Assembly: GCA_026224825.1 (NCBI GenBank)
Contig: JAMFRO010000007.1
Location: 62,001-126,000, forward strand
From: a bacterium
GTDB lineage: Bacteria > Pseudomonadota > Alphaproteobacteria > Acetobacterales > Acetobacteraceae
Length of the DNA: 64,000 nucleotides
Direction of reading: 5' to 3'
In this document: positions 32,794 through 49,237 of the stretch, in pieces
How the letters are laid out: every line of letters begins with the position of its first letter
Numbering within the stretch: the first letter of the stretch is position 1
Position numbers and translations under genes: made by a program
Notes under the pieces: model-generated
The model's input: only the letters and a program-made list of their open reading frames with translations
The model's database searches: none
Told to the model about the DNA's origin: nothing

Positions 32794-33075
32794 ATGACGA
32801 CCCAGAGCACCACCCAGACCTCCACCGAAGCCGAACTGGCGCAGCTCATCGTCACCACGCTCAATCTCGACCAGATTGTGGATGAGATCGACCCCGAAGC
32901 GCCTTTGTACGGCGATGCCGGTCTGGGGCTGGATTCCATCGACATGCTGGAAATCTCCCTCACCGTCTCGCAGCGCTACGGTGTGAAGTTGCGGGCGGAT
33001 GCCGGGAATAATGCCGAGATCTTTGCCTCGCTGCGCAGCCTGAATGCGTATATTCAGGGACAGCGCGAGCCATAA
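32794..33075 (+). CDS. Acyl carrier protein of the aryl-polyene-type cluster
   Basis: A 93-residue ACP. The phosphopantetheine attachment motif is GLGLDSIDMLEI with Ser at residue 49, and the three-helix bundle is complete. It carries the growing polyene chain. It is the first gene of the cluster; its stop directly abuts the next ATG. Shine-Dalgarno AAGGTGG lies just upstream. Typical aryl-polyene clusters have two ACPs; only this one is seen. Confidence 0.88.
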   Translation: MTTQSTTQTSTEAELAQLIVTTLNLDQIVDEIDPEAPLYGDAGLGLDSIDMLEISLTVSQRYGVKLRADAGNNAEIFASLRSLNAYIQGQREP

Positions 33076-33654
33076 ATGCGGGCGACCCCCGCTGCCCGTC
33101 CACCCCATCTGGCCTTAACGGCCATCGTCATCGTGCCGGTGCTGTCACACTGCATCATCCTGGCCACGCGGCATATCCCGCTCGGCCTGCACCCGAGCTT
33201 TGGCGGGCTGTTCAAGCTCAGCTTCGTCACCGTCTCGGCGCTTACCCATTGGGGTATCTACGTCGGCCTGCTGGCAGGTTTCGCCCTCACTTTGCGCCCG
33301 GGGCATGAACCGCTGATCACCGCCATGGCCCGGCGTATGCATGGCCCCCTCACGGCCGAGATGCTCAGCTATACGCGCAAGGTCACCATCGCCTGGTCGC
33401 TGTTCTTCGCCGTGCAGCTCAGCATCTCCATAGGGCTGTTCTGTGCCGCCCCGCTGGTGTGGTGGTCCTTCTTCGTCAATATTCTGGACATTCCTCTGGT
33501 CGCGCTGATGTTCGCGGCGGAATACGCCATCCGCCTGCGCGTGCTGGATGATCCGCCGCGCCATTCGCTGAGGGCCATCGTCGGCATGATCACCGAATGT
33601 TTCCCCGCCCCGGAGAAGGCCATGCCGGAGCACGCGGTTAGTCCCGAGCCATGA
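33076..33654 (+). CDS. Membrane protein of the aryl-polyene-type cluster (COG4648-like)
   Basis: A 192-residue integral membrane protein with about four hydrophobic segments (LALTAIVIVPVLSHCIILA, FVTVSALTHWGIYVGLLAGF, FFAVQLSISIGLFCAAPLVW, and NILDIPLVALMFAAEY). Homologues sit beside the ACP and ligase in aryl-polyene clusters. The function is unknown. Its ATG immediately follows the ACP stop, and its stop overlaps the ligase start. Confidence 0.75.
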   Translation: MRATPAARPPHLALTAIVIVPVLSHCIILATRHIPLGLHPSFGGLFKLSFVTVSALTHWGIYVGLLAGFALTLRPGHEPLITAMARRMHGPLTAEMLSYTRKVTIAWSLFFAVQLSISIGLFCAAPLVWWSFFVNILDIPLVALMFAAEYAIRLRVLDDPPRHSLRAIVGMITECFPAPEKAMPEHAVSPEP

Positions 33655-34952
33655 GCCTGGTCGGCGCCCGGCTGCAAGCCGCCGCCATGCGCGCCGGCGT
33701 GCCCGTCAGCCCGGCGGCATTCGCGCGCGATGTATCGGCTTTGGCTGCCCGCCTGCCGGACCACGCCTATGTCATCAACCTCTGCACCGACCGTTACCGC
33801 TTCATGGTGGGCTTCGCCGCCGCCTTGCAGCGCCGCCAGATCAGCCTGCTGCCCTCCGCCAACGTGCCCGCCGCCATCGCCGCTCTGGCCGAGGATTACC
33901 CGGACATTTACGCGCTCACCGATGGCACCCGCCCGGCAATCCCCTGCATGGACTACCCGGCGGATCTCACGGGCGGGACCGAAGCCGATCCGTTCGACTT
34001 GCCCGATGACCAGACGGCCGCGATCCTCTTCACCTCCGGCTCCACCGGCCGCCCCAAACCCGCCGCCAAATCCTGGTCCGTTTTGCGCCAGAGTGCGCGC
34101 GCGGCGGCGCTGCGGCTCGGCATCACCCAGCTCGCCGGGGCCACAATCATCGGCACCGTGCCGCATCATCATAGCTATGGGCTCGAATCCGTCATCCTGC
34201 TCGGCCTGCTGCACGGCGTTACCATCGACGCCGGCTGGCCGCTCTACCCCGCGGACATCCGCGCCGCTCTGGCCCGCGCGCCCCGCCCGCGCATCCTCGT
34301 TACCACGCCTGTGCATTTGCGCGCTCTGCTGGCTGAGCCGGAGGGCATGCCGCAGGTCGATCTGCTCCTCTCCGCCACCGCACCGTTGCCCGCCGAGCTG
34401 GCGGTGGCGGCCGAAACAGCTTTCGGCGCGCCGCTCATCGAAATCTACGGCTGCACCGAGGCTGGGCAGATCGCTACCCGCCGCACCGCGTTGGACTCGC
34501 AATGGCAGTGCCTCGATGGCGCGGCTCTGCATCAGGACGCGCGCGGCACCTGGGTCAGCGGCCCCAGCGTCGCCGGGCCGCAGCTTCTGCACGACACAAT
34601 CGAGCTGACCGGTGCAGCGCATTTTACCCTCGGCGCCCGCGCGGCGGATCTCGTTGATGTCGCCGGTAAGCGCACCTCTCTGGCGCATTTGAACCACCAG
34701 CTTCTCGGCATCGCAGGTGTTGAGGATGGCGTCTTCATCATGGGCGAGGCCCCCAATGGCGGCATCGCCCGCCTTGCCGCCGTGGTGGTGGCGCCAACCC
34801 TCAGCCAACGCAGCCTGCAAGCAGCACTTCGCCAGCGCATAGACGCCGCCTTTCTGCCCCGCCCGCTACTGCTGGTGGAGGCATTGCCACGCAACGCTTT
34901 GGGCAAACTCCCGCGCGCGGACTTGCTGCGCCTGCTGGGCCAAACCCCATGA
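33651..34952 (+). CDS. Acyl/aryl-ACP ligase (AMP-forming)
   Basis: A 433-residue ANL-superfamily adenylating enzyme. The P-loop is FTSGSTGRPKPAAKSW (about residues 127-142), the YGCTEAGQ motif is present, and the C-terminal Lys lies in LPRNALGKLPRADL. It activates the aryl or acyl starter (probably a hydroxybenzoate) and loads it on the ACP. It overlaps the preceding gene by 4 nt. The stop codon lies in the first of three 14-bp tandem units (34939-34980). Confidence 0.88.
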   Translation: MSLVGARLQAAAMRAGVPVSPAAFARDVSALAARLPDHAYVINLCTDRYRFMVGFAAALQRRQISLLPSANVPAAIAALAEDYPDIYALTDGTRPAIPCMDYPADLTGGTEADPFDLPDDQTAAILFTSGSTGRPKPAAKSWSVLRQSARAAALRLGITQLAGATIIGTVPHHHSYGLESVILLGLLHGVTIDAGWPLYPADIRAALARAPRPRILVTTPVHLRALLAEPEGMPQVDLLLSATAPLPAELAVAAETAFGAPLIEIYGCTEAGQIATRRTALDSQWQCLDGAALHQDARGTWVSGPSVAGPQLLHDTIELTGAAHFTLGARAADLVDVAGKRTSLAHLNHQLLGIAGVEDGVFIMGEAPNGGIARLAAVVVAPTLSQRSLQAALRQRIDAAFLPRPLLLVEALPRNALGKLPRADLLRLLGQTP

Positions 34953-34980
34953 GTCAAACCCCATGAGTCAAACCCCATGA
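34939..34980. repeat. Three 14-bp tandem units at a stop/start junction
   Basis: GCCAAACCCCATGA and two copies of GTCAAACCCCATGA stand head to tail. Each contains ATGA, so a stop overlapping a start is repeated three times. The ligase stops in unit 1 and the dehydratase ATG is in unit 3. Confidence 0.92.
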
Positions 34981-35264
34981 GTACGTGGCAGGAGCAGGAT
35001 CTTTTCATCCCCGCCGATCACCCGAGTGCGGCCGGGCATTTCCCCGGCAACCCCATCATCCCCGGCGCCTTGCTGCTGGATGCGGTCGTCGCCGCAATAG
35101 GACTTAGCAACATCACCATCCATAACGCCAAATTTTTGATCCCCATCCCGCACGGCACCAAGCTGCAACTGCGCTGGCAAGGGGAGGGGGGCAAAAACCG
35201 TTTCGAATGCCGGACCGGTGACGATGCGCTGGTGATGACCGGCATTCTGGCGGCCGCACCATGA
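34977..35264 (+). CDS. 3-hydroxyacyl-ACP dehydratase (short, ApeI/FabZ-like)
   Basis: A 95-residue hot-dog-fold dehydratase. The active-site region is AAGHFPGNPIIPGALLLD with catalytic His21. It dehydrates 3-hydroxyacyl-ACP during polyene extension. It is shorter than FabZ (about 150), as usual for ApeI-type proteins. Its stop overlaps the start of the acyltransferase by 4 nt. Confidence 0.85.
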   Translation: MSTWQEQDLFIPADHPSAAGHFPGNPIIPGALLLDAVVAAIGLSNITIHNAKFLIPIPHGTKLQLRWQGEGGKNRFECRTGDDALVMTGILAAAP

Positions 35265-36166
35265 CCGAAACATCGCGAGCACAGCCATGGGCCACACAGC
35301 CCGAGCGCGGTTCCGCCTCCGTGCTCAAACTCGGCGTGTGGGCGGCGCGCAGCCTCGGCCGCCCGCTGGCCAGGCTGCTGCTCTACCCGCTGTGCCTGTA
35401 TTTCCTGGTTTCATCCCCTACCGCCGCCCGTGCCTCTTCCGGCTACCTGCGCCGCGCCCTTGGCCGCGCCCCGCGCCTTGCCGACCGCTTCGCCCATTTT
35501 CTCAACTTCGCCCGCTGCCTGTTGGACCGCGTCTTCCTTCTCAACGATGAATCGGATGATTTCGAAGTCACCGTGCACGGTGAGGAGATTTTGCAGGAGA
35601 TCGAGCGCCAGGGCGGTGGTTGCATTCTCTTCGGCGCGCATTTCGGCAGTTTCGAGGTAGCCCGTGCCATCGGCCGTAGGCGCCGGCGCGACCTGCCCAT
35701 CAGCCTGCTGATGTATGAGGAGAACGCGCAGAAAATCAGAGCCGCCCTGGCCGCCATCAACCCCAATCTCGCGACTGAGGTCATCGGCCTTGGCCGCGCG
35801 GATTCGCTCATCGCCGTGGCTGAGCGCCTGCGCAGCGGCCACTTCATCGGCGTGCTGGCGGACCGCAATGTCGATGGCCGCGACCTGGTGCGTTACGACT
35901 TCCTCGGTGCCCCGGCCTCTTTCCCGCAAGGCCCGTTCCGCGTCGCCCTTATGCTGCAGCGCCCTGCCGTGCTGATGGTCGGCATCTATCGCGGTGGCCG
36001 GCGCTACGAGGTGCATTTTGAAACCCTGGCCGAGGCCACCACCACTCGGCCGGCGGATTCCGCTGCATGGCTCGACGATTTTATGAAACGCTATGTTTCC
36101 AGGATAGAGCATTACTGCCGTGAGGCGCCGCATAATTGGTTCAACTTCTATGATTTCTGGGCTTAA
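35261..36166 (+). CDS. LpxL/HtrB-like lysophospholipid-type acyltransferase
   Basis: A 301-residue acyltransferase with the FGAHFGSFE motif (catalytic H-x4-E), LADRNVDGRDLV, and the C-terminal EHYCREAPHNWFNFYDFW. Such proteins in aryl-polyene clusters are thought to attach the polyene to a lipid. The N-terminal region has one hydrophobic helix (LLLYPLCLYFLVSS). It overlaps the next gene by 17 nt. Confidence 0.87.
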   Translation: MTETSRAQPWATQPERGSASVLKLGVWAARSLGRPLARLLLYPLCLYFLVSSPTAARASSGYLRRALGRAPRLADRFAHFLNFARCLLDRVFLLNDESDDFEVTVHGEEILQEIERQGGGCILFGAHFGSFEVARAIGRRRRRDLPISLLMYEENAQKIRAALAAINPNLATEVIGLGRADSLIAVAERLRSGHFIGVLADRNVDGRDLVRYDFLGAPASFPQGPFRVALMLQRPAVLMVGIYRGGRRYEVHFETLAEATTTRPADSAAWLDDFMKRYVSRIEHYCREAPHNWFNFYDFWA

Positions 36167-36737
36167 GTTGCGCCGCGTTTTTGTGGTCCTGTGCCTTCTC
36201 GCCGCCAGCCCCGCCCAAGCGCAAACCGCCTGGGGCTTGCCGCAGCTTATGCAAAGCCTGGCGCAAACGCCGAGCGGCAGCGCCAATTTTACGGAACGCC
36301 AAACCTCGCCCGTGCTCAGCGCCCCGCTCACCAGCACGGGTACGCTCAGTTTTATCGCCCCCAATTACCTGCGCAAAACCACCAACGCTCCGGCGCAGGA
36401 GGTTTTTACGCTCGACCATGACCAGGTCACCCTCACTGGCGGCAGCGGCACGCATGTCTTCCAGATCAACCAGGACCCGCGCATCGCCGGCATGGTCGAA
36501 GCCATACGCTCCACCCTCACCGGCGATCTGCCCACGCTCCAGCAATATTACACCGTCACCCTGAGTGGCGATTCTTCCAATTGGCAGTTGCATCTTCTGC
36601 CAAAAGGCGATGCCCTTACGCGTTTCCTGCGCGCTGTCACCATCACTGGCGTGGCAAACCACATCACCAGCATAGACACCGCCAGCGCCGATGGCAGCGA
36701 CTCCCGCATGAACATCACCCCCGCCGATGCGCCGTAA
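36150..36737 (+). CDS. LolA-like periplasmic carrier protein
   Basis: A 195-residue secreted protein with signal peptide MISGLKLRRVFVVLCLLAAS, cleavage after AQA. The mature part resembles LolA-type lipoprotein carriers (GSANFTERQTSPVLSAPLTS, GTLSFIAPNYLRKTT). It likely ferries the polyene or its lipid through the periplasm. It starts at ATG 36150, overlapping the preceding acyltransferase by 17 nt; a GTG at 36120 in frame is less likely. Confidence 0.8.
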   Translation: MISGLKLRRVFVVLCLLAASPAQAQTAWGLPQLMQSLAQTPSGSANFTERQTSPVLSAPLTSTGTLSFIAPNYLRKTTNAPAQEVFTLDHDQVTLTGGSGTHVFQINQDPRIAGMVEAIRSTLTGDLPTLQQYYTVTLSGDSSNWQLHLLPKGDALTRFLRAVTITGVANHITSIDTASADGSDSRMNITPADAP

Positions 36738-39018
36738 ACCCCTTGCCATATGGCTGGCATTGCTGGCGTTGTGCGGCCTCATCGCCGCGCGCAGCAGCTA
36801 CCGCACGGATATGGGCGATTTTCTCCCCCATTCCGCCTCTCTCGCGCAGCAGGTTCTGGCCGGCCAGGTGAATGGCGGGGCCGCTTCGCACATCGTCCTC
36901 GTCGCCATCAAAGGCGCGCCCACGCCGGTGCTTGCCACATTGAGCCAGAGCCTCGCCACACAACTGCGTCAGCAGCCGGAATTCCTGGACGTGTTGAATG
37001 GCGATGAGGACTCTTTCAAAGCTGTGCAAAACTACGTCTGGACCAACCGCTACCTGCTAAGCCCGCAGGTCAGCGCGGCAGAGTTTTCAACCACCGGCCT
37101 GCACAGCGCCTTACAAAGCGATCTTTCGCTCCTGGGCTCCGAATTAGGCATGGCGCTGGGCGCCAGCCTGCCCAGCGATCCTACCGGCGAGATATTCCCG
37201 CTCACCAAGCAACTCGCCAGCGGCCCCGGCCCCACCACACAAAACGGCGCCTGGGTCTCCGCCGATGGCACCGCCGCGCTGCTCCTGGTGCATACAAAAG
37301 CCGCCGGATTTGATCTCGACTCGCAACAACAAGCCTTGGTTGAAATCCGCGCGCAATTCGCAAAAGCCCGTACCGCCTCACCAGGGGCAGGGGGCGCAAT
37401 TCTGGAAATGAGCGGCCCCGGCGTCTTCGCCGTCACCACCCGCGACACCACCAAGCAGGATGTCTCCCGCCTCTCCATGCTCGCTTTGCTCGGCGCCGCC
37501 GGATTGCTCGCCTTCGCCTACCGCTCCCCGCGCGTATTGCTGCTGGGGCTGCTCCCCATCGCCAGTGGCGCGTTCGCCGCCATCGCCGCCGTCTCGCTGG
37601 CCTTTGGTTTCGTGCACGGCATCACGCTCGGCTTCGGCGTTACCCTCATCGGCGAATCGTTGGACTACGCCATCTATCTTTTCACCCAGACCGGGCGCGG
37701 CGAGCAGGGCAGCGACACACTCTCGCGCATCTGGCCCACTTTGCGCCTGGGTGCACTCACCTCCATCGCCGGCTTCTGCGCCATGCTGGGCTCCAGTTTT
37801 ACCGGCTTCGCCCAGCTCGGCCTGTTCTCCATCGCCGGGCTGGTGGCTGCCGCCGCCACCACCCGCTTTGTCCTGCCCAACCTCATGCCGCAAGGGTTTT
37901 TCGCCCCCGGCGCCGAGCCCCTGGCCCGGCCGGTGCAATTTCTGCTCCGCCACAAACACGGCGCCCGCGCCGCACTGGTCACCGCCTTCCTCGCCGCCAT
38001 CATCGCCCTCCTTCTGCACCGCGGCGGCATGTGGGACACCAACCTGCTCAACCTCTCCCCCATCCCCACCGCCCAGCAGCAGCTCGACAACACCCTCCGC
38101 CGGCAGCTAGGCGTGTCCGACCAGCGCTATTTCGCCGTCTTCAAAGCGCCGGACGAGCAGCGGGCGTTACAGATGAGCGAAGCCCTTGCCCCCAAACTCA
38201 ACGCCCTCGTCACCGCGCAAGTTCTCTCCGGCTTCGACCTCCCCAGCGCCATCCTGCCCAGCGACCAAACCCAGCGCGCGCGCCAGGCCGCCTTGCCCGA
38301 GGCCACCACGCTGCAGGCGAACTTCGCAGCCGCCGTCAAAGGGCTTCCCTTCAACCCCCAAGCCTTCGTTCCGTTCTTCCGTGATGTCGCGGCACAAAAA
38401 TCCGCCCCGCTGCTCACCCAAGCCAGCCTGTCCCCAGCACTGGCCCTGCAATTCGATTCACTGCTAACCCGTAACGGCCCCGATTGGGTCGTCATCATCC
38501 CCCTGCACAACGTCACCAACCCCGCCGCCATCACCCAGGCAGGCATTTCGTTCGTCGATCTCAACCAGCAATCAGACCGCCTGCTCGCCACTTTCCAGAA
38601 TCAGGCCGTCACACTTGCCGTTGCCGGCAGTCTCGCCATCCTGCTCATCCTCGGCTTCGGCCTGCGCAGCATCCGCCGCGTCGCCGCCATCGCCGCCCCG
38701 CTCGCCATCGCCGTCACCATCACCGCCGCACTTCTCACGCTGGGCGATGCAAAACTCTCCATCTTCATGGTCGCCGGCTTCCTGCTTATCATCGCCATCG
38801 GCTCCAACTACTGCCTGTTTTTCGAGCGCTCCGCCCCCGATCAGCCGCGCGCCGCCGCCTCCATCGTGCTCGCCAATCTCTGCACCGTCGCCGCTTACGG
38901 GCTGCTGTCCTTCTCCCGCATCCCGGTCCTGCACGACATCGGCCTCACCGTCGCCACCGGCACGTTTTTATCCCTCATCTGCGGCGCTATCCTCAGCACG
39001 CCCAAAGCCGCAGCATGA
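36727..39018 (+). CDS. MMPL/RND-type exporter
   Basis: A 763-residue inner-membrane transporter with two blocks of membrane helices separated by large periplasmic loops. The first block includes LLGAAGLLAFAYRSPRVLLL and ESLDYAIYLFTQTGRGEQG, and the second KLSIFMVAGFLLIIAIGSNYCLF. It probably moves the acylated polyene across the inner membrane, handing it to the LolA-like carrier encoded just before. It overlaps that gene by 11 nt and the next by 4 nt. Confidence 0.88.
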   Translation: MRRKPLAIWLALLALCGLIAARSSYRTDMGDFLPHSASLAQQVLAGQVNGGAASHIVLVAIKGAPTPVLATLSQSLATQLRQQPEFLDVLNGDEDSFKAVQNYVWTNRYLLSPQVSAAEFSTTGLHSALQSDLSLLGSELGMALGASLPSDPTGEIFPLTKQLASGPGPTTQNGAWVSADGTAALLLVHTKAAGFDLDSQQQALVEIRAQFAKARTASPGAGGAILEMSGPGVFAVTTRDTTKQDVSRLSMLALLGAAGLLAFAYRSPRVLLLGLLPIASGAFAAIAAVSLAFGFVHGITLGFGVTLIGESLDYAIYLFTQTGRGEQGSDTLSRIWPTLRLGALTSIAGFCAMLGSSFTGFAQLGLFSIAGLVAAAATTRFVLPNLMPQGFFAPGAEPLARPVQFLLRHKHGARAALVTAFLAAIIALLLHRGGMWDTNLLNLSPIPTAQQQLDNTLRRQLGVSDQRYFAVFKAPDEQRALQMSEALAPKLNALVTAQVLSGFDLPSAILPSDQTQRARQAALPEATTLQANFAAAVKGLPFNPQAFVPFFRDVAAQKSAPLLTQASLSPALALQFDSLLTRNGPDWVVIIPLHNVTNPAAITQAGISFVDLNQQSDRLLATFQNQAVTLAVAGSLAILLILGFGLRSIRRVAAIAAPLAIAVTITAALLTLGDAKLSIFMVAGFLLIIAIGSNYCLFFERSAPDQPRAAASIVLANLCTVAAYGLLSFSRIPVLHDIGLTVATGTFLSLICGAILSTPKAAA

Positions 39019-39668
39019 TCAACTGTCTGCACTACCCGGCCCCCTCGGGCGGCGCGGAGATTCTCCTTATCATGCTGCCCGGTGCCGGCATCGAGGCCGC
39101 GGCTTTCGCCACCAACGGCATGATCGCCATCGCCCATGAGCACGCCGTGGTGGACATCATCGTCGCCCACCCAGACATGGGCCTCTACCTCGAAGACGGC
39201 GTGACAGACATACTCCACAGCACCGTCATCGCCCCCGCACTGGCGCGCGGCGTTACCCGCATCTGGCTGCTTGGCATCTCGCTCGGCGGCATGGGCGCCC
39301 TGCTTTATGCCAGTGCTTACCAGCAGAATATCGAAGGTATTTTTCTCCTCGCCCCCTTCCTCGGTACCCGCGGCACCACCGCCGAAATCCTGCGCGCCGG
39401 CGGGCTTGCCGCCTGGAGCCCGGCCAATTCCACCGCAACGGAGCCGGAACAACGCCTGCTCGCCTGGCTGCAAACCCACCTCACCACAGAGTGCGCTCCC
39501 GTCATCCACCTCGGCTACGGCGTAAAAGACCGTTTCGCCCCCGCCCACCAGCTCCTGGCCCAGCACCTGGAACACGTCACCACCACCCCAGGCGGGCACG
39601 ATTGGCCAAGCTGGCGCGCCCTGTGGCAGCAACTCGCCCCCGTGCTTGGACGCTGCCATGCGCGATGA
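39015..39668 (+). CDS. Alpha/beta-hydrolase (putative thioesterase of the cluster)
   Basis: A 217-residue alpha/beta-hydrolase. It has the nucleophile elbow GISLGG, the region GYGVKDRFAPAHQLL (Asp candidate) and PGGHDWPSW (His candidate). It may release the chain or edit it, replacing the usual ApeK-type thioesterase which I do not find. The ATG is at 39015, 4 nt before the MMPL stop. The function is inferred from context. Confidence 0.7.
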   Translation: MINCLHYPAPSGGAEILLIMLPGAGIEAAAFATNGMIAIAHEHAVVDIIVAHPDMGLYLEDGVTDILHSTVIAPALARGVTRIWLLGISLGGMGALLYASAYQQNIEGIFLLAPFLGTRGTTAEILRAGGLAAWSPANSTATEPEQRLLAWLQTHLTTECAPVIHLGYGVKDRFAPAHQLLAQHLEHVTTTPGGHDWPSWRALWQQLAPVLGRCHAR

Positions 39669-42817: not shown

Positions 42818-43242
42818 AGCGCGACGAGATTCTGACAAAAATCCCGCACGCCGGCGCGATGTGCCTGCTCGACGAAGTCCTTGACTGGGACAGTGAAAAA
42901 ATAAATTGTCTGTCGCATCGTTTTGCGCAAGCAGACAACCCTTTGCGCCGCCCGGACGGCACTCTGGGCACAGCCAGCGGCATAGAGATCGCCGCGCAAG
43001 CCATGGCCCTGCACGGCCGCCTCACCGCCCCAGTGGATGGCGGCCCCATCCCCGGCTACCTCGTAGCCTTGCGCGGCGTAAACCTCACCGCCCCCAGCCT
43101 CGACATCCCCGGCCCTCTCACCATTACCGCCATCAGGCTGCTGGGTGACACCTCAGGCGCCACCTACAGTTTTTCCGTCGTAAGCCCGCAAACGGAATGT
43201 CTCACCGGCCGCGCCACAGTGCTGTTCGGTGCAGGGCTATGA
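42814..43242 (+). CDS. 3-hydroxyacyl-ACP dehydratase (ApeP-like)
   Basis: A 142-residue hot-dog dehydratase. The N-terminal IPHAGAMCLLDEVLDWD holds His12, and GIEIAAQAMALHG continues the fold. It likely works with the shorter dehydratase at 34977 on the growing chain. It ends in a 4-nt overlap with the ketoreductase. Confidence 0.83.
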   Translation: MKRDEILTKIPHAGAMCLLDEVLDWDSEKINCLSHRFAQADNPLRRPDGTLGTASGIEIAAQAMALHGRLTAPVDGGPIPGYLVALRGVNLTAPSLDIPGPLTITAIRLLGDTSGATYSFSVVSPQTECLTGRATVLFGAGL

Positions 43243-43946
43243 GCCGCGCTCTCGTCACCGGCGGCAGCGGAATCATCGGCGGCGCCATCGCCCGCGCCCT
43301 TGCGGCAGAGGGTCATCATGTCTACATCCACGCTCACGGCCAGATCGAAAAAGCGCAAGCGCTGGCGGCGGAAATCGGCACCGCCGAAGCCGTGAGCTTC
43401 GACCTTACCGACGCTGCCCAGACCCAGACGGCACTCACGAAAATCCTCGAACAAGGCCCCATCCAGATCCTCATCAACAACGCCGGCATCCATGACGACG
43501 CCGTGCTCCCCGGCATGCGCCCCGAGCAATGGTCGCGCGTCATCGATGTCTCCCTCAACGGTTTCTTCAACGTCACCCAGCCGCTGCTCATGCCGATGAT
43601 CCGCACCCGCTGGGGCCGCATCATCAACATCTCCTCGGTGGCAGCGGTCATGGGCAATCGCGGCCAGGCCAATTACGCTGCCGCCAAAGCCGGGTTGCAC
43701 GGCGCCACACGCTCGCTCTCGCTGGAACTCGCCAGCCGCGGCATCACGGTGAACACCGTCGCGCCCGGCATCATCGCTTCGCCCTCAACCGAAACGATTT
43801 TTCCGAAAGAAACCATCAAGCAACTCGTGCCGATGCAACGCGCCGGCCAGCCGCAGGAGGTCGCCGACCTCGTCGCCTTCCTCGCCTCCGTGCGCGCCGG
43901 CTATATCTCCGGCCAGCTCATCTCCATCAACGGCGGCATGGCCTGA
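43239..43946 (+). CDS. 3-ketoacyl-ACP reductase (FabG-like, ApeQ type)
   Basis: A 235-residue SDR with TGGSGIIGG (residues 7-15), NNAG, and the catalytic YAAAK in QANYAAAKAG, ending ISINGGMA. It reduces the 3-keto intermediates of polyene extension. It is the last gene of the plus-strand operon 32794-43946; the 114 nt that follow contain no gene. Confidence 0.92.
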   Translation: MSRALVTGGSGIIGGAIARALAAEGHHVYIHAHGQIEKAQALAAEIGTAEAVSFDLTDAAQTQTALTKILEQGPIQILINNAGIHDDAVLPGMRPEQWSRVIDVSLNGFFNVTQPLLMPMIRTRWGRIINISSVAAVMGNRGQANYAAAKAGLHGATRSLSLELASRGITVNTVAPGIIASPSTETIFPKETIKQLVPMQRAGQPQEVADLVAFLASVRAGYISGQLISINGGMA

Positions 43947-44060
43947 ACTTCATTTGCAAATCCGTTCTGGCGGCCATGTGGCGGCGTTCGGCTGCGCGCC
44001 GGTGCTCGCCGAACACCGCCAACTGACTCGCCATAACGAATTTCCAAACGAAGTTTCGCC

Positions 44061-44771
44061 TCAGAGGAGACGGCGCAAAGCCGCCGCCATCAGCCATAAA
44101 TGCATCCCCGCGAGGCGCAGATTATCCCGCCCATAGCGAAAATGTGAGACCCCGCCTTCCTCTTTGCTAAAATACCGTACCGGCACAGCCCGGTTGATTA
44201 CCGGCACGCCGCGCCAGCACAAGCGCACCGCCGCCGCCGTATCAAAATCATAACGCCGCATATCCCGCCGCTCTTGCATCACCGCCAGCAGCGCTGCCAG
44301 CGGATACACCCGGAACCCAAACAGCGCGTCGCCGATATTCCGCCCCGTCTCCCACCGCGCCAGCACATTGGAAATGCGCCGCCCCATCACCCGCACCAGC
44401 GGCGCGCTCGCATCGAACACCGGCACCCCGAGGATCATCGCCTCCTGATTCTGCTCCGAAATTTCCATGAAATTCGCAATCTCATCGGCCGGATGCTGCC
44501 CATCCGCATCCATCACCAGCACATGGCTGAAACCTTCGGCACTGGCAGCCTCCAGCCCCGCCAGCACCGCCGCTCCCTTGCCGCCATTGCGCGCACGCCG
44601 TATCACCCGCAACCCTGGCCCATCCGTCAGCCCCGCATCGCTGCCATCATCGCTGCCATCCACCACCACCCACACCGGCTGCCAAACCGCCAGCGCCGCC
44701 GCCACGGTCTGCGCCAGCCGCGCCCCGGTATTATAACTCGGTATCAGAACAAGATGCGTCGCGGAATCCAC
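44061..44771 (-). CDS. Family 2 glycosyltransferase
   Basis: A 236-residue GT-A enzyme. It has VLIPSYNTGARLAQTVAAAL, VVVDGSDDGSD, and the DXD-type region VMDADGQHPADEI, followed by the KGAAVLAGL segment. It may glycosylate the pigment or transfer a sugar to its lipid. The start is set at GTG 44771, since the upstream flavoprotein stops at 44777; a longer frame upstream is a shadow. Homologues are frequent in aryl-polyene clusters. Confidence 0.83.
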   Translation of the reverse strand: MDSATHLVLIPSYNTGARLAQTVAAALAVWQPVWVVVDGSDDGSDAGLTDGPGLRVIRRARNGGKGAAVLAGLEAASAEGFSHVLVMDADGQHPADEIANFMEISEQNQEAMILGVPVFDASAPLVRVMGRRISNVLARWETGRNIGDALFGFRVYPLAALLAVMQERRDMRRYDFDTAAAVRLCWRGVPVINRAVPVRYFSKEEGGVSHFRYGRDNLRLAGMHLWLMAAALRRLL

Positions 44772-44776
44772 GACGC

Positions 44777-46075
44777 TTAAGAGCGCGCCTCTTGCGGCGC
44801 GGCGCTCACGGGCTCGCCCGTTACTTTGAAGCGCATCTGCGCCAGCTTGGTGAGATAATAAAAAAACCGGAACACATACAGCCGCGACTTGACCGGCCAG
44901 CCGTCGTAAATCCCGCCCGCGAGCAGCGACAGCACCGCCTCTTCCATACGGAACCAGTTGCGTGGCGACATGAACAAATTGCGCATCGCCGGCTCGCGGA
45001 TGCGATAGATGAACCAGGTGAACGACCTCAATATATGCCGCGCCGAAGCATCGTAACGCCGCAAAGCCCGCGCTGCTTTCGCCGGTTTCGCCAGGCATTC
45101 GTCCACGGCATCCGCCGCCCAGAAGCCCATCTTCATCGCCACATACACGCCGGTGGAAAACACAGGGTCGATGAAGGCGCAGGCATCCCCCGCCATCAGA
45201 TAATTCCGTCCGCTCTTTATTTTTGTTTCGTAGGAGAAATTTCCCGTCGCCGTCACATTGCCCACCAGCGTGGCATCCTTCAACCGGTCCGCCAGCTCCG
45301 GGCTCGATGCAATCAGCCCCATGAGGAAACTTGTGAGATCCGTGCCGCGATTCTTGAACGCCTCCGCAGGTGCCACCGCCCCGACGCTGGTGGTGCCGTC
45401 AGACAGCGGGATGAACCAGAACCAGCCCAGGTCGAACCAGACGATGGAGATATTCCCCTCCGCCTGGCCTTCCAGCCGCCTTGCCCCGGTAAAATGCCCG
45501 AAAACCGCGGCGGTGTTATTATGCGGGTTGCGCGTCTTGCCGCCCAGTTTGCTGGCCAGCACCGTATCGCGCCCCGAGGCATCCACCACAAACTTCGCGC
45601 GCCACTGCCGCTCCACCCCATCATCGCCCTGCGCCATCACCAACGGATCAGCATCGTCGGGCAATTCCACGGCGGTCACGCGGCATTCCTCGAACACTTC
45701 CGCGCCCTTGGCCTTGGCATTTTTAAGCAGAATATGGTCGAACACCGAGCGCCTTACCTGAAACGCATACGGAAACCTTTTGTCCCACGCGCGGGCAAAC
45801 TCATAGCGCATGGTCTTGCCATGAAACGGCGAGACGAACTCAATCCCATGCTTACGCTGCGCGCTCGTCTCAATCTGCGCGCGTACGCCCAGCCGGTCCA
45901 GCATCGGCAGGTTATGCGGCAGCAGCGATTCGCCGATGTGGAAGCGCGGGTGGCGCTCTTTCTCCACCAGCACCACATGCCGTCCCCGCTCGGCCAGCAG
46001 CGCCGCCACGGTGGAGCCCGCCGGGCCGCCGCCGATCACCAGCACATCACAATCGCAAGCCTGTATCTGTGCCAT
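44777..46075 (-). CDS. FAD-dependent enzyme with halogenase hallmarks
   Basis: A 432-residue FAD protein. The dinucleotide motif is VLVIGGGPAGSTVAALL (GGGPAG at 15-20). WFWFIP at 218-223 matches the WxWxIP motif of flavin-dependent halogenases. Lys75 in RKHGIEFVSP falls where the catalytic Lys of PrnA-like halogenases is (K79 by my memory). Xanthomonadins are brominated aryl polyenes, so a halogenase in this cluster is plausible; a plain FAD monooxygenase is the alternative. A separate flavin reductase is not seen here. ATG at 46075; the longer upstream frame lacks support. Confidence 0.8.
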   Translation of the reverse strand: MAQIQACDCDVLVIGGGPAGSTVAALLAERGRHVVLVEKERHPRFHIGESLLPHNLPMLDRLGVRAQIETSAQRKHGIEFVSPFHGKTMRYEFARAWDKRFPYAFQVRRSVFDHILLKNAKAKGAEVFEECRVTAVELPDDADPLVMAQGDDGVERQWRAKFVVDASGRDTVLASKLGGKTRNPHNNTAAVFGHFTGARRLEGQAEGNISIVWFDLGWFWFIPLSDGTTSVGAVAPAEAFKNRGTDLTSFLMGLIASSPELADRLKDATLVGNVTATGNFSYETKIKSGRNYLMAGDACAFIDPVFSTGVYVAMKMGFWAADAVDECLAKPAKAARALRRYDASARHILRSFTWFIYRIREPAMRNLFMSPRNWFRMEEAVLSLLAGGIYDGWPVKSRLYVFRFFYYLTKLAQMRFKVTGEPVSAAPQEARS

Positions 46076-46167
46076 CTGGAAACTCCTTGTGCGGAGGCAA
46101 GGCGTTGACCCGCCTGCCATATCCGCCGATGAATGGTTCAGCCGAAATAAGCCACAGGTCCGCCTTC

Positions 46168-46950
46168 ATGTCCAACGCCGACGACCATACGGAAGAGGGG
46201 CGCGCCCAGGCGCGCGTCGCGGCATATTATGCGGATCCGGCACGGCGCCTGACTTTGATGCGCGATCTCTTCAACCGCTCTGCACGATATTACGATTTGG
46301 TAAACCTTCTCGTCTCGCTCGGCTCCGGCGCCTGGTACCGCCGCTTCTGCCTGCGCCGCGCCGGCTTGGGCTCCGGCAAAACATTAGTGGACATCTGCAC
46401 CGGCACCGGACTGCTGGCGCGCGAGGCCGTCCGCCTCACCGGCAAAACCGGGCTGGTCATCGGTGTGGATGTCAGTGAGGCCATGCTCGCCATCGCCCAG
46501 CGCAACCTCGGTATTCCCCTCATCCAGGCCAGCGCCGAGGCCCTGCCGCTTGCCGATGGCATCGCCGATTTCGTGACCATGAGCTACGCTTTGCGCCATG
46601 TCGCGGATCTGCAAACCGCCTTCGCCGAAGCCCGCCGAACCTTGCGCCCCGGCGGCACCATGCTGCTGCTGGAGGTGAGCGCCCCGCGCAACCGAATCCT
46701 GCGCGCGCTGGTGGGCAGCTTCATCGGCTTTCTCATCCCGCGCCTCTCGCAACTCGCCACGCGCGATGCCCGCGCTCGCGCCCTGATGCAATATCACTGG
46801 CAGACGATATTGAGCTACATGCCGCCGGATGTGGTATTGCGCGTGATGCGCGAGAGCGGTTTCGAGAGCGTCACCTGCACCAGCTATATCGATTTGTTTC
46901 ACTATTACATCGGCCACAAACCCTCGGAGCCCGAATGCCCCCCGCCATGA
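46168..46950 (+). CDS. Class I SAM-dependent methyltransferase (UbiE/COQ5-like)
   Basis: A 260-residue methyltransferase. It has the TLVDICTGTGLLAREAVRL motif I, VIGVDVSEAML, and the UbiE-like ADFVTMSYALRHV with a conserved RTLRPGGTM. A role on a polyprenyl-like or polyene/aryl acceptor is possible, for example O- or C-methylation of the pigment. ATG 46168 is preferred over 46129. Its 3' end overlaps the antiporter start by 16 nt, so the two are translated together. Confidence 0.85.
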   Translation: MSNADDHTEEGRAQARVAAYYADPARRLTLMRDLFNRSARYYDLVNLLVSLGSGAWYRRFCLRRAGLGSGKTLVDICTGTGLLAREAVRLTGKTGLVIGVDVSEAMLAIAQRNLGIPLIQASAEALPLADGIADFVTMSYALRHVADLQTAFAEARRTLRPGGTMLLLEVSAPRNRILRALVGSFIGFLIPRLSQLATRDARARALMQYHWQTILSYMPPDVVLRVMRESGFESVTCTSYIDLFHYYIGHKPSEPECPPP

Positions 46951-48224
46951 CCGCGCAGCAGCAAACCGAAACCCTGCTGTTCTCCATCCTCATCCAATTG
47001 GTCGTCATGATCGGCGCCGCGCGCATCATGAACATTCTGTTCCGCCGCTTTGGCCAGCCAGGCGTCATCGGCGAAATCGTCGCCGGGCTGCTGCTCGGGC
47101 CTTCGCTGCTCGGGCATTTCTGCCCCGGCATTTCCGCCGCCATTTTCGGCATCAAACCCGCACCCACGGTGGCCATATTATCGCAGGTCGGACTCATTCT
47201 GTTGATGTTCCAAATCGGCATGGGCTTCGAGTTCGGCCAGTTGCGCGAGGCCCGCGCCAAGCGCGCGCTGCTCCCTTTGGCGGTCGTTTCTGTACTGGTC
47301 CCATTCGCGGCGGGCATCTGGCTCGGCCATGTTTCCGCACCCATCTTCGCCGGGCAAATTTCCGTGCCCGTCTATGCCCTGTTCTGCGGCGTCGCCATGG
47401 CCATCACCGCCGTGCCGGTGCTGGGGCGCATCCTCGCCGGCTACGGCATGGAGCGCCATGAGCTTGGCGTGCTCGCCATCTCTGCCGCGGCGTTCAACGA
47501 TGTCACCGGCTGGCTGCTGCTGGCCGCTGTCGGTGCCATCGCCACCGCCAGTTTCGCGCCCTCGCATACCATTCTGCAGCTCGCTGAACTATTCGGCTTC
47601 GCCCTCATCTGTATTTTCATCCTCCGCCCCGCCACCGACAAATTGCTGAAGTCATTCCCTGTCAGCAATGGTGAAGTCTCCCCCACACTGGTCGCCATCG
47701 TGCTGGTCTGCGTCTTCATCCTCGGCATGTGCACCTACAAACTCGGCATTTTCGGCATTTTCGGCGGCTTCGTCGGTGGCCTGCTGGTGCATCACGATCA
47801 GGAATTCACCGCCGCCTGGCGCCGCCAGGTCGGCGGCTTCGTCCTCGTCTTCTTCCTGCCTATCTTCTTCACCTATACCGGCTTGCACACCAACCTGCTC
47901 GGCCTCACCACCGGCACAGACTGGCTCTGGCTCCTTATCTTCGTTGCGGTCTCGGTGCTCGCCAAAATCGTGCCGGTCGCCCTCGTCAGCCGCTTCGCCG
48001 GCTACGAAACCAAAGCCGCCATATTGCTTGGTGTACTGATGAACACCCGCGGCCTGATGGAGCTGATCGTCCTCAACATCGGCCTGGAAACCGGCTTTTT
48101 ACCACAGAAGATTTTTACGATGCTGGTACTGATGGCGGTGGTGACAACGCTGATGGCAGGCCCGGCGTTAAAATATCTAATGCCCCGCCTAGGTCTGGAA
48201 ATTCCCACCAGCACGGAAGCCTGA
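46935..48224 (+). CDS. CPA2-type cation:proton antiporter
   Basis: A 429-residue membrane protein with about 12 helices. The N-terminal segment IMNILFRRFGQPGVIGEIVAG is typical of Kef/NapA-like CPA2 antiporters, and FNDVTGWLLLAAVGAIATAS and NTRGLMELIVLNIG are signature segments. It exchanges K+ or Na+ for protons across the inner membrane. Its overlap with the methyltransferase gene is unusual for a housekeeping antiporter and suggests co-expression with the cluster. Confidence 0.87.
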   Translation: MPPAMTAQQQTETLLFSILIQLVVMIGAARIMNILFRRFGQPGVIGEIVAGLLLGPSLLGHFCPGISAAIFGIKPAPTVAILSQVGLILLMFQIGMGFEFGQLREARAKRALLPLAVVSVLVPFAAGIWLGHVSAPIFAGQISVPVYALFCGVAMAITAVPVLGRILAGYGMERHELGVLAISAAAFNDVTGWLLLAAVGAIATASFAPSHTILQLAELFGFALICIFILRPATDKLLKSFPVSNGEVSPTLVAIVLVCVFILGMCTYKLGIFGIFGGFVGGLLVHHDQEFTAAWRRQVGGFVLVFFLPIFFTYTGLHTNLLGLTTGTDWLWLLIFVAVSVLAKIVPVALVSRFAGYETKAAILLGVLMNTRGLMELIVLNIGLETGFLPQKIFTMLVLMAVVTTLMAGPALKYLMPRLGLEIPTSTEA

Positions 48225-48235
48225 AGTATAAAAAT

Positions 48236-49237
48236 TTACGGCCTATAATACGCCTCGATCTCAATAAGCAGATCCGGCCGGCACACCTCACCATGCAGAT
48301 AGAGAAGCTGCGCCGCCATGCCAAACATCGCGACCAGCGCCGGCTCCACCAGCGCCCGCGCCAGAGGGTCGTGCAGATAGATCTTCAAGGCCCAGCCTTG
48401 CGAGTCTGCCAGTGCGGCGGTTTGCCCGGCATTGTTGATCACGGCGCGCAGGTTTTCCAGTGTCTCTTCGGTCTGTGCGGGCAGGTCGCCTTTGTGGCGC
48501 GTCTCATGCCCCACGATGCTGGCGGTGCCGGAGATGAACAATGCCTCGCCATATATGCCGGCGCGGGAAAAACTGGGGGAGCGTGGCCCGTATTGCTGCG
48601 GGTATTCATAGGCACTCACCTGGCGCGGATTCTCAACCGGCTGTGCGGCTTCGCGCGCGGCCAGAAAATACACAGCGGAAGTTCCTTCATGCCCGCCCAC
48701 GCCGCTCGCCGCCGGCGGCACCGCCTGGTGCAGCCGCGCAAGGTAGGCCCGGTGCCGGCCGATGTTGAAGCGCCGGTAGCGCTCCATCCCCCGGTCATCA
48801 CCCAGGATCGCGGTCAGATAATTCCAGAACCGTATCGGCTCGGCAAACCCGCTCCCGGATAAAAAATCGAATATGGCGAGATAGGCCTGCTCGACCACTT
48901 CCTCCAGCGTCCGCCCCGGTACCTCTTCCAGCCGCACGCAGCCAAAGGCCAGATCATCGCTATACGCCCCTTGCACCGGCCCGGCGGCAAACGGCCTCAC
49001 GGCGGTCTCGGCGGTCCACAGCTCGTAAGCCGGGACACCGTCCACGGGCGCCAGTGGTGCTGCGATGAACGGGCAGCCGGGTGGCAGCGCCTCCGGCCGT
49101 GCTGCGCCGTAGCCCACCACCCCAAGCATATGGCTGAAATCCGCCGGCAGAGCGCGCGCGTAGGCTAGACTCGGCAAACCCAGCGTGGGCAAACCCAGCG
49201 TCTGCTGCGCAACCTGCGGCGATAGAGAGGATGGCAC
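48236..49237 (-). CDS. Chorismatase (Hyg5/FkbO/XanB2 family), probable hydroxybenzoate source
   Basis: A 333-residue chorismate hydrolase/lyase-like enzyme. The C-terminus EVCRPDLLIEIEAYYRP has Cys319 and Glu326 spaced seven apart, which fits my memory of Hyg5 (C327, E334), the type that makes 3-hydroxybenzoate. FISGTASIVGHETRHKGDLP and RFWNYLTAI are family segments. XanB2 makes hydroxybenzoate starters for xanthomonadin. The start is GTG with Shine-Dalgarno AAGGAG. The N-terminus has an in-frame tandem duplication (LGLPTLGLPS). It faces the antiporter, at the 3' edge of the cluster. Confidence 0.85.
   Translation of the reverse strand: MPSSLSPQVAQQTLGLPTLGLPSLAYARALPADFSHMLGVVGYGAARPEALPPGCPFIAAPLAPVDGVPAYELWTAETAVRPFAAGPVQGAYSDDLAFGCVRLEEVPGRTLEEVVEQAYLAIFDFLSGSGFAEPIRFWNYLTAILGDDRGMERYRRFNIGRHRAYLARLHQAVPPAASGVGGHEGTSAVYFLAAREAAQPVENPRQVSAYEYPQQYGPRSPSFSRAGIYGEALFISGTASIVGHETRHKGDLPAQTEETLENLRAVINNAGQTAALADSQGWALKIYLHDPLARALVEPALVAMFGMAAQLLYLHGEVCRPDLLIEIEAYYRP
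49172..49201. repeat. 15-bp tandem duplication in the chorismatase N-terminus
   Basis: CGGCAAACCCAGCGT and GGGCAAACCCAGCGT adjoin, in frame, giving the LGLPTLGLPS stretch near residues 14-23. Confidence 0.88.

What the first reader, a model, noticed from the sequence alone, without database searches (positions are those of the whole stretch)
32794..49237. Aryl-polyene/xanthomonadin-type pigment cluster with its own hydroxybenzoate source
The plus-strand operon has ACP, aryl/acyl ligase, two dehydratases, ketosynthase, chain-length-factor-like protein, ketoreductase, LpxL-like acyltransferase, LolA-like carrier, MMPL exporter, an alpha/beta-hydrolase and one unrecognised protein. Beside it lie GT2, a halogenase-like flavoprotein, a methyltransferase, an antiporter and a chorismatase. 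This is the part list expected for a xanthomonadin-like brominated polyene, with a plausible starter supplier and halogenase. Compared with typical clusters, a second ACP, a third ketosynthase, a phosphopantetheinyl transferase and a separate thioesterase are missing from this window.
Basis: partly seen in the sequence, partly recalled or inferred. Interest (0 to 1): 0.85.

Follow-up and report, generated by a model that had tools for sequence, protein, structure and literature searches.

The report
Xanthomonadin-type pigment cluster with extra acyltransferase-like enzyme
A bacterium of the vinegar-bacteria family carries a complete-looking gene set for a yellow xanthomonadin-type membrane pigment, including its own maker of the aromatic starter and a halogenase-like enzyme, plus an unplaced protein that looks like a fatty-acid-transferring enzyme and has apparently moved from outside the inner membrane to inside.

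Summary
KS, CLF, dehydratases, KR, ACP, ligase, ApeG, LolA and MMPL match the E. coli CFT073 aryl-polyene cluster or solved relatives; GT2 and the LpxL-like protein are the two halves of ApeJ. One ACP, one KS, half-size CLF, antiporter, halogenase and chorismatase make it Azoarcus/Xanthomonas-type; the second ACP, third KS and thioesterase it 'lacks' are E. coli-type parts. The chorismatase has the four 3-hydroxybenzoate-type (CH-II) residues and tracks the pigment KS in 150 genomes. Bromination is untested. Such clusters in Acetobacteraceae are already listed in silico (PMC8776678). The unexpected part is the 'unrecognised protein' (39658-40830): found in 13 of 150 genomes, all with the pigment KS; modelled fold permuted NlpC/P60; distantly related to Lnb lipoprotein N-acyltransferase. 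In 43 of 48 related loci it carries a lipoprotein signal; the window's clade has lost that leader and conserved cysteines but keeps His/Cys and purifying selection. I propose an acyl-transfer step in anchoring the pigment lipid (about 0.4).

The parts
31845..32618 (+). AraC-type regulator, possible cluster regulator
   Evidence: HTH_18 and cupin hits; also upstream of ACP in L085 and L086. Regulation not tested.
32794..33075 (+). acyl carrier protein (ApeE-like)
   Evidence: NF006617 112.3 bits, cut-off 70; 48% to E. coli ApeE
33076..33654 (+). ApeG/COG4648 membrane protein
   Evidence: 31% to E. coli ApeG, E 3.6e-8; no Pfam or NCBIfam hit
33651..34952 (+). AMP-dependent aryl ligase (ApeH-like), proposed to load the aromatic starter
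   Evidence: PF00501 E 1.9e-23; 29% to ApeH, E 5e-25; best NCBIfam model (4-coumarate ligase) far below its cut-off
34977..35264 (+). FabZ-like dehydratase (ApeI-like)
   Evidence: PF07977 25.8 bits, cut-off 23; 44% to ApeI over 57 aa
35261..36166 (+). LpxL-like acyltransferase = C-terminal half of ApeJ
   Evidence: PF03279; matches ApeJ 250-549, E 1e-35
36147..36737 (+). LolA-like periplasmic carrier (ApeL-like)
   Evidence: PF19574 59.8 bits; ApeL E 2.7e-4
36727..39018 (+). MMPL/RND exporter (ApeM-like)
   Evidence: PF03176; 26% to ApeM, E 4e-21
39015..39668 (+). alpha/beta-hydrolase with GISLG nucleophile motif; candidate release enzyme in place of ApeK
   Evidence: PF00756 24.6 bits, cut-off 22; GxSxG at residue 87; role inferred
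39658..40830 (+). unrecognised protein (UNK): permuted NlpC/P60-like, Lnb-related candidate thiol acyltransferase; leaderless here, lipoprotein in most relatives
40827..42011 (+). ketosynthase (ApeO-like)
   Evidence: NF006618 489 bits, cut-off 407; 44% to ApeO; best solved match 6qsp_A; STACAA at the active-site Cys
42011..42817 (+). half-size chain-length factor (ApeC-like)
   Evidence: PF13723 E 3.6e-30; ApeC E 2e-12; solved matches 7f28_A and 6qsp_B
42814..43242 (+). second dehydratase (ApeP-like)
   Evidence: profile of 16 homologues hits 6qsr_B (FabA/FabZ dehydratase) E 6.8e-11; PF22817 ApeP-like in 3 of 16, best E 0.022, window copy none; no BLAST match to E. coli ApeP at E<1
43239..43946 (+). 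ketoreductase (ApeQ-like)
   Evidence: NF004200 340 bits, cut-off 273; 46% to ApeQ
44061..44780 (-). GT2 glycosyltransferase = N-terminal half of ApeJ
   Evidence: PF00535; 40% to ApeJ 9-238, E 4e-47
44777..46078 (-). FAD-dependent halogenase-like protein
   Evidence: PF04820 E 1e-30; nearest solved chains named halogenase 8zop, 3e1t; Lys76 in 27 of 27 and WxWxIP in 28 of 28 homologues
46162..46950 (+). UbiE/COQ5-like methyltransferase, candidate head-group methylation
   Evidence: PF01209 E 4e-33; homologues beside other clusters
46935..48224 (+). CPA2-type cation/proton antiporter
   Evidence: PF00999 E 1e-48; an Na+/H+ antiporter (arcG) is in the Azoarcus cluster table
48236..49237 (-). FkbO/Hyg5-family chorismatase, 3-hydroxybenzoate-forming type by residues G179, G237, C319, E326
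   Evidence: PF21168 99.6 bits, cut-off 27; TIGR04444 201 bits, below its cut-off of 325; alignment to 5ag3, 5a3k, 4bps; residue meaning from PMC7170507 passages

Best explanation
This is a xanthomonadin/arcuflavin-type aryl-polyene cluster of an Acidocella-like member of the Acetobacteraceae. Proposed course: the chorismatase turns chorismate into 3-hydroxybenzoate; the ligase loads it on the ACP; KS plus half-CLF, KR and two dehydratases build an aryl polyene; the methyltransferase and halogenase-like enzyme decorate the head; GT2 and the LpxL-like acyltransferase (split ApeJ) join it to a glycolipid; MMPL and LolA carry the lipid outwards. Shown here: gene identities, key motifs, conserved order and co-occurrence. 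Inferred: each catalytic step and the product. Within it, UNK is a family of its own with a modelled permuted NlpC/P60 (papain-like) fold and invariant His44/Cys209, distantly related to Lnb lipoprotein N-acyltransferase; I propose that it makes or remodels the acyl linkage that anchors the pigment lipid (about 0.4 for acyl transfer; about 0.7 that it acts on the pigment lipid or its anchor in some way). In most relatives it is an exported lipoprotein; in the window's clade it has lost leader and conserved cysteines and would work in the cytoplasm.
For: Family hits over curated cut-off for ACP, KS, KR; BLAST to the E. coli cluster; solved relatives for KS, CLF, ApeP. Same order in L085 and, ACP to KR, in L086. 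Chorismatase: all four CH-II residues; 15 of 16 strong hits (E<1e-25) in genomes with the KS (E<=1e-70), 11 of those 15 within 10 kb of it (Fisher p 8e-8). UNK: 13 of 150 genomes, all 13 among the 48 with the KS (p 1e-7); of 48 loci from genome contigs 35 have 3 or more core cluster genes in the held stretch. Fold: domain model pLDDT 90.6, pTM 0.89 with H44 opening a strand and C209 opening a helix; VIA Z 9.4 to TseH (146 of 183 residues, 3.5 A) and 7.7 to the RID effector domain, next row 3.5. Lnb_N: 10 of 41 members at E up to 1, one (L087, 23.6 bits) over Pfam's cut-off of 22.2; profile-profile E 1.2e-4 with the two cysteines aligned. Leader loss: 43 of 48 loci have a lipobox-like motif and all 43 keep Cys at 22, 53, 66 and 170; the window, L085, L086 and L090 have no leader and have each lost two or three of those four, yet keep H44, H84, C209; they form one group, 100/100 (46 of 48 loci plus window); omega for UNK between window and L085 is 0.19, seven other cluster genes 0.11-0.25.
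Against: No product, expression or activity is known. The chorismatase stays below NCBIfam's cut-off for the FkbO/Hyg5 subfamily (201 of 325 bits). UNK is not universal: 35 of 48 KS-positive genomes lack it and in 13 of 14 UNK-negative cluster loci read MMPL is followed by KS within about 100 bases. UNK occurs without the pigment KS (E<=1e-50) in 3 of 12 searched genomes among the 13 loci with fewer than 3 core genes nearby, all MAGs, and in Acetobacter okinawensis JCM 25146 (L118). The window copy itself reaches Lnb_N only at E 0.07, 31 of 41 members not at all, and the profile-profile probability is 55% over 71 columns without the His region. Foldseek gave no significant match. TseH shows phospholipase activity in one of two assays, so the fold does not decide transfer versus hydrolysis. 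Related genomes are not independent, so the Fisher values are too small (strong chorismatase hits fall in 5 genera, nine of 16 in one; UNK in 8 genera). L090 is a draft with broken genes. dS is near saturation (0.9-1.25). A cytoplasmic and a periplasmic enzyme cannot share the same access to substrate.
Confidence: 0.78

Rival explanations
1. A general aryl-polyene cluster started from 4-hydroxybenzoate as in E. coli; the chorismatase mainly feeds ubiquinone and merely sits nearby.
For: No UbiC (PF04345) in the host; XanB2 of Xanthomonas supplies both pathways (PMC3949708 passages); 33 of 48 KS-positive genomes lack a strong chorismatase hit; TIGR04444 cut-off not reached.
Against: UbiC is rare in the order sample (8 of 150, one genus), so its absence here says little; 15 of 16 strong chorismatase hits are in KS-positive genomes; CH-II residues all present.
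Confidence: 0.15
2. UNK is a hydrolase (phospholipase or thioesterase/esterase releasing or recycling acyl chains) and not an acyltransferase.
For: Best structural match TseH, and Tox-Act1 of the same superfamily, show phospholipase activity (PMC12994826 passages); the cluster has no ApeK.
Against: Closest sequence family is Lnb, a transferase; RID is an acyltransferase (recalled); the alpha/beta-hydrolase is a simpler ApeK substitute.
Confidence: 0.3
3. The leaderless UNK of the window is a decaying remnant.
For: It lost its leader and two conserved cysteines; long branch for L090.
Against: Omega 0.19 against L085, in the range of seven other cluster genes (0.11-0.25); His44, His84 and Cys209 kept in all four leaderless copies; the gene stays open and overlaps both neighbours.
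Confidence: 0.1
4. The halogenase-like flavoprotein does not halogenate; it is a hydroxylase or reductase and the pigment carries no bromine.
For: All 25 NCBIfam hits shown (of 96) are below cut-off, the second best being the monooxygenase QhpG; Azoarcus has a gene annotated as halogenase (arcA) and the passages seen on arcuflavin mention no halogen; that arcuflavin carries none is recalled.
Against: Lys76 in 27 of 27 and WxWxIP in 28 of 28 homologues; nearest solved chains are mostly named halogenases. That these motifs mark halogenases is recalled.
Confidence: 0.4

Closest known systems
Arcuflavin clusters of Azoarcus sp. BH72 (arcA-arcX; PMC3949708)
   Same: One KS, one half KS-like protein, one ACP in the arc loci, two dehydratases, KR, ligase, LolA, exporter, GT, acyltransferase, methyltransferase, Na+/H+ antiporter, chorismatase, halogenase
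   Different: Azoarcus has two unlinked loci, DAR genes, a second acyltransferase, a MipA-like and a deacetylase gene; no UNK-type gene is recognisable by name in its table (names only compared)
Xanthomonadin-like cluster of Lysobacter enzymogenes OH11 (PMC3691225) and xanthomonadin clusters of Xanthomonas
   Same: KS plus half-CLF, ACP, two DH, KR, chorismatase homologue, separate GT-type ORF15 and acyltransferase; Xanthomonas also a halogenase
   Different: Lysobacter lacks the halogenase; sequences of these clusters were not compared here
Aryl-polyene cluster of E. coli CFT073 (apeA-apeR)
   Same: Homologues of ApeC, E, G, H, I, J, L, M, O, Q by BLAST and an ApeP counterpart by position and profile
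   Different: No ApeR, ApeK, ApeD, ApeN, ApeA, ApeB or second ACP; ApeJ split; chorismatase, halogenase, antiporter and UNK added
Aryl-polyene clusters of Acetobacteraceae listed by antiSMASH (PMC8776678)
   Same: Same family of bacteria; a probable halogenase beside the KS is mentioned
   Different: In the passages seen the other genes are named only broadly or as hypothetical; no Lnb-like protein or chorismatase is mentioned there
Lnb (DUF4105) lipoprotein N-acyltransferases and other permuted NlpC/P60 enzymes (TseH, Tox-Act1, LRAT, YiiX; PMC12994826)
   Same: His-first, Cys-later order with NC motif, modelled fold, link to lipids
   Different: Own family without a Pfam or NCBIfam model of its own, tied to pigment clusters, extra C-terminal helical region, leaderless in the window clade

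Membership tests
Aryl-polyene biosynthetic cluster | ApeO-type KS with ApeC-type partner | tested here: met
Aryl-polyene biosynthetic cluster | dedicated ACP, aryl ligase, two DH, KR | tested here: met
   second DH by profile and position only
Aryl-polyene biosynthetic cluster | LolA-like carrier, MMPL exporter, COG4648 protein, GT/acyltransferase | tested here: met
Aryl-polyene biosynthetic cluster | ApeN (DUF3261) OM component | tested here: inconclusive
   no window protein matches; the genome search was silent but so were all controls
Aryl-polyene biosynthetic cluster | aryl polyene product | not testable with these tools
   needs extraction and mass spectrometry
Xanthomonadin-type cluster | chorismatase of the 3-hydroxybenzoate-forming type | tested here: met
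   by residues only: G179, G237, C319, E326; CH-II against CH-III not resolved; activity untested
FkbO/Hyg5 chorismatase | PF21168 over cut-off | tested here: met
   99.6 bits, cut-off 27
FkbO/Hyg5 chorismatase | NCBIfam subfamily TIGR04444 over cut-off | tested here: not met
   201.4 bits, cut-off 325, best model by far; filed as FkbO/Hyg5-like
Xanthomonadin-type cluster | halogenase-like gene in the cluster | tested here: met
   absent from the pigmented Lysobacter cluster, so not obligatory
Xanthomonadin-type cluster | brominated 3-hydroxyphenyl polyene | not testable with these tools
   product unknown
Permuted NlpC/P60 superfamily (UNK) | fold with His before Cys, Cys at helix start | tested here: met
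   (model, not a solved structure)
Lnb (DUF4105) family (UNK) | match to PF13387 over its cut-off | tested here: inconclusive
   window copy 13.1 bits, cut-off 22.2; 10 of 41 members at E up to 1, L087 23.6 bits; NF051878 in 1 of 41 at E 0.037
Lnb (DUF4105) family (UNK) | lipoprotein N-acyltransferase activity | not testable with these tools
   no assay; host also carries a separate strong PF13387 protein on C54
Flavin-dependent halogenase | GxGxxG, active-site Lys, WxWxIP | tested here: met
   all three in the window copy; meaning of motifs recalled
Flavin-dependent halogenase | curated NCBIfam halogenase model over cut-off | tested here: not met
   NF033113 205 bits, cut-off 900; so filed as halogenase-like only

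The most novel reading that the evidence does not exclude
UNK founds a new enzyme family: a Lnb-like cysteine acyltransferase dedicated to aryl-polyene lipids that anchors the pigment or adds its fatty chain, normally as a lipoprotein outside the inner membrane, and that in the Acidocella-type clade was moved into the cytoplasm in a single event by loss of its leader, followed by loss of its disulfide cysteines, while staying active. The step at which the pigment lipid is finished would then differ in side of membrane between relatives.
Probability: 0.3. Interest if true: 0.7.

Novelty: new variant of a known kind. Interest (0 to 1): 0.5.

Why it matters
How aryl polyenes are fixed to the outer membrane is only partly known: the E. 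coli study proposes ApeD and ApeJ for anchoring and says the anchoring molecule in E. coli is not known, while noting that the lipid of X. doucetiae had been solved (PMC8253772, section 4 part 1 and passages). A pigment-linked relative of Lnb gives a defined candidate for such a step, with a named catalytic cysteine to test. The natural pair of exported and leaderless forms would allow a test of which side of the membrane the step needs. For the cluster itself, the genes predict a 3-hydroxybenzoate-started and possibly halogenated pigment in the Acidocella branch of the Acetobacteraceae, a family for which the paper seen says none of the listed metabolites had been purified (PMC8776678).

Tried and rejected
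UNK as the E. coli lipoprotein ApeA or as ApeN (DUF3261): no BLAST match to either at E<1, so rejected as a simple homologue. UNK as a stand-in for some other gene in UNK-negative clusters: MMPL and KS hits lie within about 100 bases of each other in 13 of 14 of them, the 14th (L178) having no MMPL hit. Plain Foldseek gave no significant hit for either UNK model; the fold claim rests on VIA-align, Lnb_N and hhalign. The first, whole-length model gave the same two top rows with lower scores (Z 8.3 and 6.8), with helical CorA-type rows at up to 5.6 below. PDB sequence search with the UNK profile: best E 1.3. ApeN in the genome: silent also in all controls, so it shows nothing. UbiC as evidence for a dual role of the chorismatase: uninformative, since only 8 of 150 genomes have it. 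Ten open frames near five stand-alone UNK genes (L103, L105, L109, L110, L125) gave no common theme, and several are probably not genes. The CLF glutamine reported as essential in Lysobacter was not checked in the window. Third ketosynthase: the genome has one other full-length match (C3) and three short matches to PF00109, not identified further. Paper searches that bear on an absence: 'aryl polyene' with 'NlpC', none; 'aryl polyene' with 'Acetobacteraceae', five, one seen in passages; 'aryl polyene' with 'lipoprotein' and two more terms, four, two seen in part. The 12 relatives and the 48 loci overlap in part (same contigs, e.g. L024 and L104), so they are not added together. The alignment of 41 took 39 of the 48 loci, L025 and the window; left out were L090, L102, L104, L114, L117, L118, L122, L123 and L131 (broken, truncated or near-copies). 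The tree left out L117 and L131.

Full report
What is there. The window is G000:C102:62001-126000 of a 4.27 Mb, 108-contig genome. The nearest relative by cluster sequence is L085, a MAG titled Acidocella sp. (63-84% identity per gene for ACP to chorismatase, AraC 91%, full order); L086, an unplaced MAG, has the operon from ACP to KR (57-81%), with no hit to GT2, HAL, MT, antiporter or CHOR in the 7 kb after it.

Aryl-polyene identity. ACP, KS and KR pass curated NCBIfam cut-offs (NF006617, NF006618, NF004200). Against the 18 translated ape genes of E. coli CFT073 (fetched) the window proteins match ApeE, G, H, I, J, L, M, O, C and Q. GT2 matches ApeJ 9-238 at 40% and the LpxL-like protein ApeJ 250-549 at 29%: ApeJ is split here. 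The second dehydratase has no BLAST match to ApeP at E<1, but a profile of 16 homologues matches chain 6qsr_B, a FabA/FabZ-type dehydratase, at 6.8e-11, and it lies between CLF and KR, as ApeP lies between ApeO and ApeQ in E. coli. KS finds 6qsp_A and then 7f28_B, CLF finds 7f28_A and 6qsp_B as nearest solved chains; that 6qsp is an ApeO-ApeC complex is recalled.

Type. The Azoarcus arc table (section read) lists one KS, an N-terminal KS-like protein, one ACP, two dehydratases, KR, ligase, LolA, exporter, GT, two acyltransferases, methyltransferase, Na+/H+ antiporter, chorismatase and halogenase. The window has all of these but the second acyltransferase. In Lysobacter the KS partner is a half-size CLF, and deleting the chorismatase homologue cut pigment by about 90%, restored by 3-hydroxybenzoate (PMC3691225, passages). 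The host has two ACPS-domain hits elsewhere.

Starter. The chorismatase passes Pfam PF21168 (99.6 bits, cut-off 27) but not NCBIfam TIGR04444 (201 bits, cut-off 325). It has G179, G237, C319 and E326 at the positions that PMC7170507 gives as CH-II residues and active-site Glu (passages; positions; that chains 5ag3 and 5a3k are Hyg5 is recalled). FkbO has Ala at the Cys position in the printed alignment. In 150 genomes of the order, 19 have a hit at E<=1e-8, of which 16 are strong (E<1e-25; I set this line after seeing the list); 15 of the 16 have the pigment KS (48 of 150 have it at E<=1e-70), the exception being G016; of the three weak ones G065 has the KS and G090 and G113 do not. In 11 of the 15 the two genes are within 10 kb, the window included. 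Kinship inflates this: nine of the 16 strong hits are one genus. CH-II against CH-III (XanB2, mixed products) is not resolved.

Halogenase. Pfam Trp_halogenase E 1e-30; of 15 solved chains listed the nearest are mostly named halogenases, with a flavoprotein/dehydrogenase (3nix) and a lipid reductase (3oz2) further down. In an alignment of 28 sequences (window and 27 of 48 loci with a hit over 150 bits) Lys76 is kept in 27 of 27 with a residue there and WxWxIP in 28 of 28. No NCBIfam model shown reaches its cut-off. Halogenation is possible, not shown.

The unrecognised protein (UNK, 39658-40830; residue numbers from M at 39658). No Pfam or NCBIfam hit for the window copy at E<=0.01. It occurs in 13 of 150 genomes of the order (8 of 41 genera), all 13 KS-positive; the three same-genus genomes in the sample have neither. 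Of 12 relatives whose surroundings I read, 9 have it beside the pigment genes and 3, one genus, have it beside an ACP; in the one of these three whose KS locus I read, that locus showed no ACP in 19.9 kb (L190). A scan of the genome-contig collection gave 48 loci; 35 hold 3 or more of 11 core cluster genes, 31 KS and CLF. Of the 13 others 12 genomes could be searched and 9 have the KS (two of them, G349 and G353, only a more distant one at 45-47% identity); the 3 without are MAGs. One titled Myxococcales (L125) and one titled Gammaproteobacteria (L130) are MAG contigs that may be misbinned.

Fold. An alignment of 41 sequences gives invariant H44, H84, W90, D159, N208-C209. The domain model (residues 1-256) has pLDDT 90.6 and pTM 0.89; H44 opens a strand, C209 opens a helix. 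VIA-align puts TseH first (Z 9.4, 146 aligned, 3.5 A) and RID second (Z 7.7), the next row at 3.5; Foldseek alone finds nothing significant. Independently, 10 of 41 members touch Pfam Lnb_N at E up to 1, L087 over the cut-off at 23.6 bits. hhalign against 25 Lnb_N sequences gives 55% probability, E 1.2e-4, with UNK C209 on the Lnb cysteine; the His part is not aligned. TseH, DUF4105/Lnb and Tox-Act1 are described as clades of permuted NlpC/P60 enzymes, with conserved His and Cys and activity on lipids for Tox-Act1 and TseH (PMC12994826, passages). That RID is an N-fatty-acyltransferase is recalled.

Change of side. In 43 of 48 loci a lipobox-like motif precedes the domain (regular expression plus reading). 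All 43 have cysteines at 22, 53, 66 and 170. L126 has a signal-like stretch without lipobox and keeps all four; L131 is truncated. L085, L086 and L090 have no leader, nor has the window copy: its 44 in-frame codons upstream lie within the hydrolase gene, hold no long hydrophobic stretch and offer only a TTG start four codons before the ATG. They have lost, of the four cysteines: window 53 and 170; L085 22, 53 and 170; L086 22, 53 and 66; L090 53 and 170, and 22 if its reading, which starts there, is right. H44, H84 and C209 remain in all four. The four form one group with 100/100 support in an unrooted tree, so one loss of export is enough. Between window and L085 omega is 0.19 for UNK, against 0.11-0.25 for seven other cluster genes, with dS near saturation. 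That the four cysteines form disulfides outside the cytoplasm is inferred. L090 is a draft with broken genes, so its missing leader alone would be weak.

Role. UNK is not needed for every such pigment: 35 of 48 KS-positive genomes lack it, and in 13 of 14 UNK-negative loci read MMPL is directly followed by KS (L178 showed no MMPL hit). It is best seen as an added step. The window lacks ApeD, one of the two acyltransferases proposed for anchoring in E. coli (PMC8253772), and lacks ApeK. With an Lnb-like active site, transfer of an acyl chain onto the pigment lipid or its anchor is my first choice (0.4), hydrolysis second (0.3). The alpha/beta-hydrolase with GISLG motif is the better candidate for release from the ACP.

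Verdict. The addition is UNK, which I met in none of the passages seen; the only direct search for it was 'aryl polyene' with 'NlpC', no papers.

Noticed in passing
49352-53491 (-): 1379-aa protein with a C-terminal Hint_2 domain (PF13403 E 1e-39) and a repetitive Thr/Ser-rich body, right beside the chorismatase; looks like a large surface or secreted protein.
   Followed up: no
L163 (G000:C54): The host also carries a clear PF13387 (Lnb/DUF4105) protein elsewhere, E 1.1e-37, so UNK is not its only relative of that superfamily.
   Followed up: partly
L025-L027, L190, L191: One genus with single-contig 2.7 Mb genomes has the pathway scattered over three loci: KS cluster, ACP with UNK, and chorismatase, each about 0.5 Mb apart in G028.
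   Followed up: partly
L118: Acetobacter okinawensis JCM 25146 keeps UNK, halogenase (in two pieces), KR, ApeP and ACP hits but no pigment KS was found in its genome at E<=1e-50: decaying cluster or assembly gap; strain DsW_060 (L119) has the KS.
   Followed up: partly
L094: Acidisphaera sp. S103: UNK stands beside a more distant aryl-polyene-like cluster with an ApeN homologue.
   Followed up: no
L090: Asaia astilbis JCM 15831 draft: ligase and second dehydratase appear in pieces, suggesting frameshifts or sequencing errors.
   Followed up: no
L177, L182, L188: Three of 14 UNK-negative Acetobacteraceae cluster loci carry a homologue of the E. coli lipoprotein ApeA (34-44%); none was seen at E<=1e-3 in the UNK-positive loci searched.
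   Followed up: no
G000:C62: A large open frame with a PP-binding domain (1506 aa) lies about 3 kb from the second ACPS-type PPTase candidate; possible NRPS/PKS locus.
   Followed up: no
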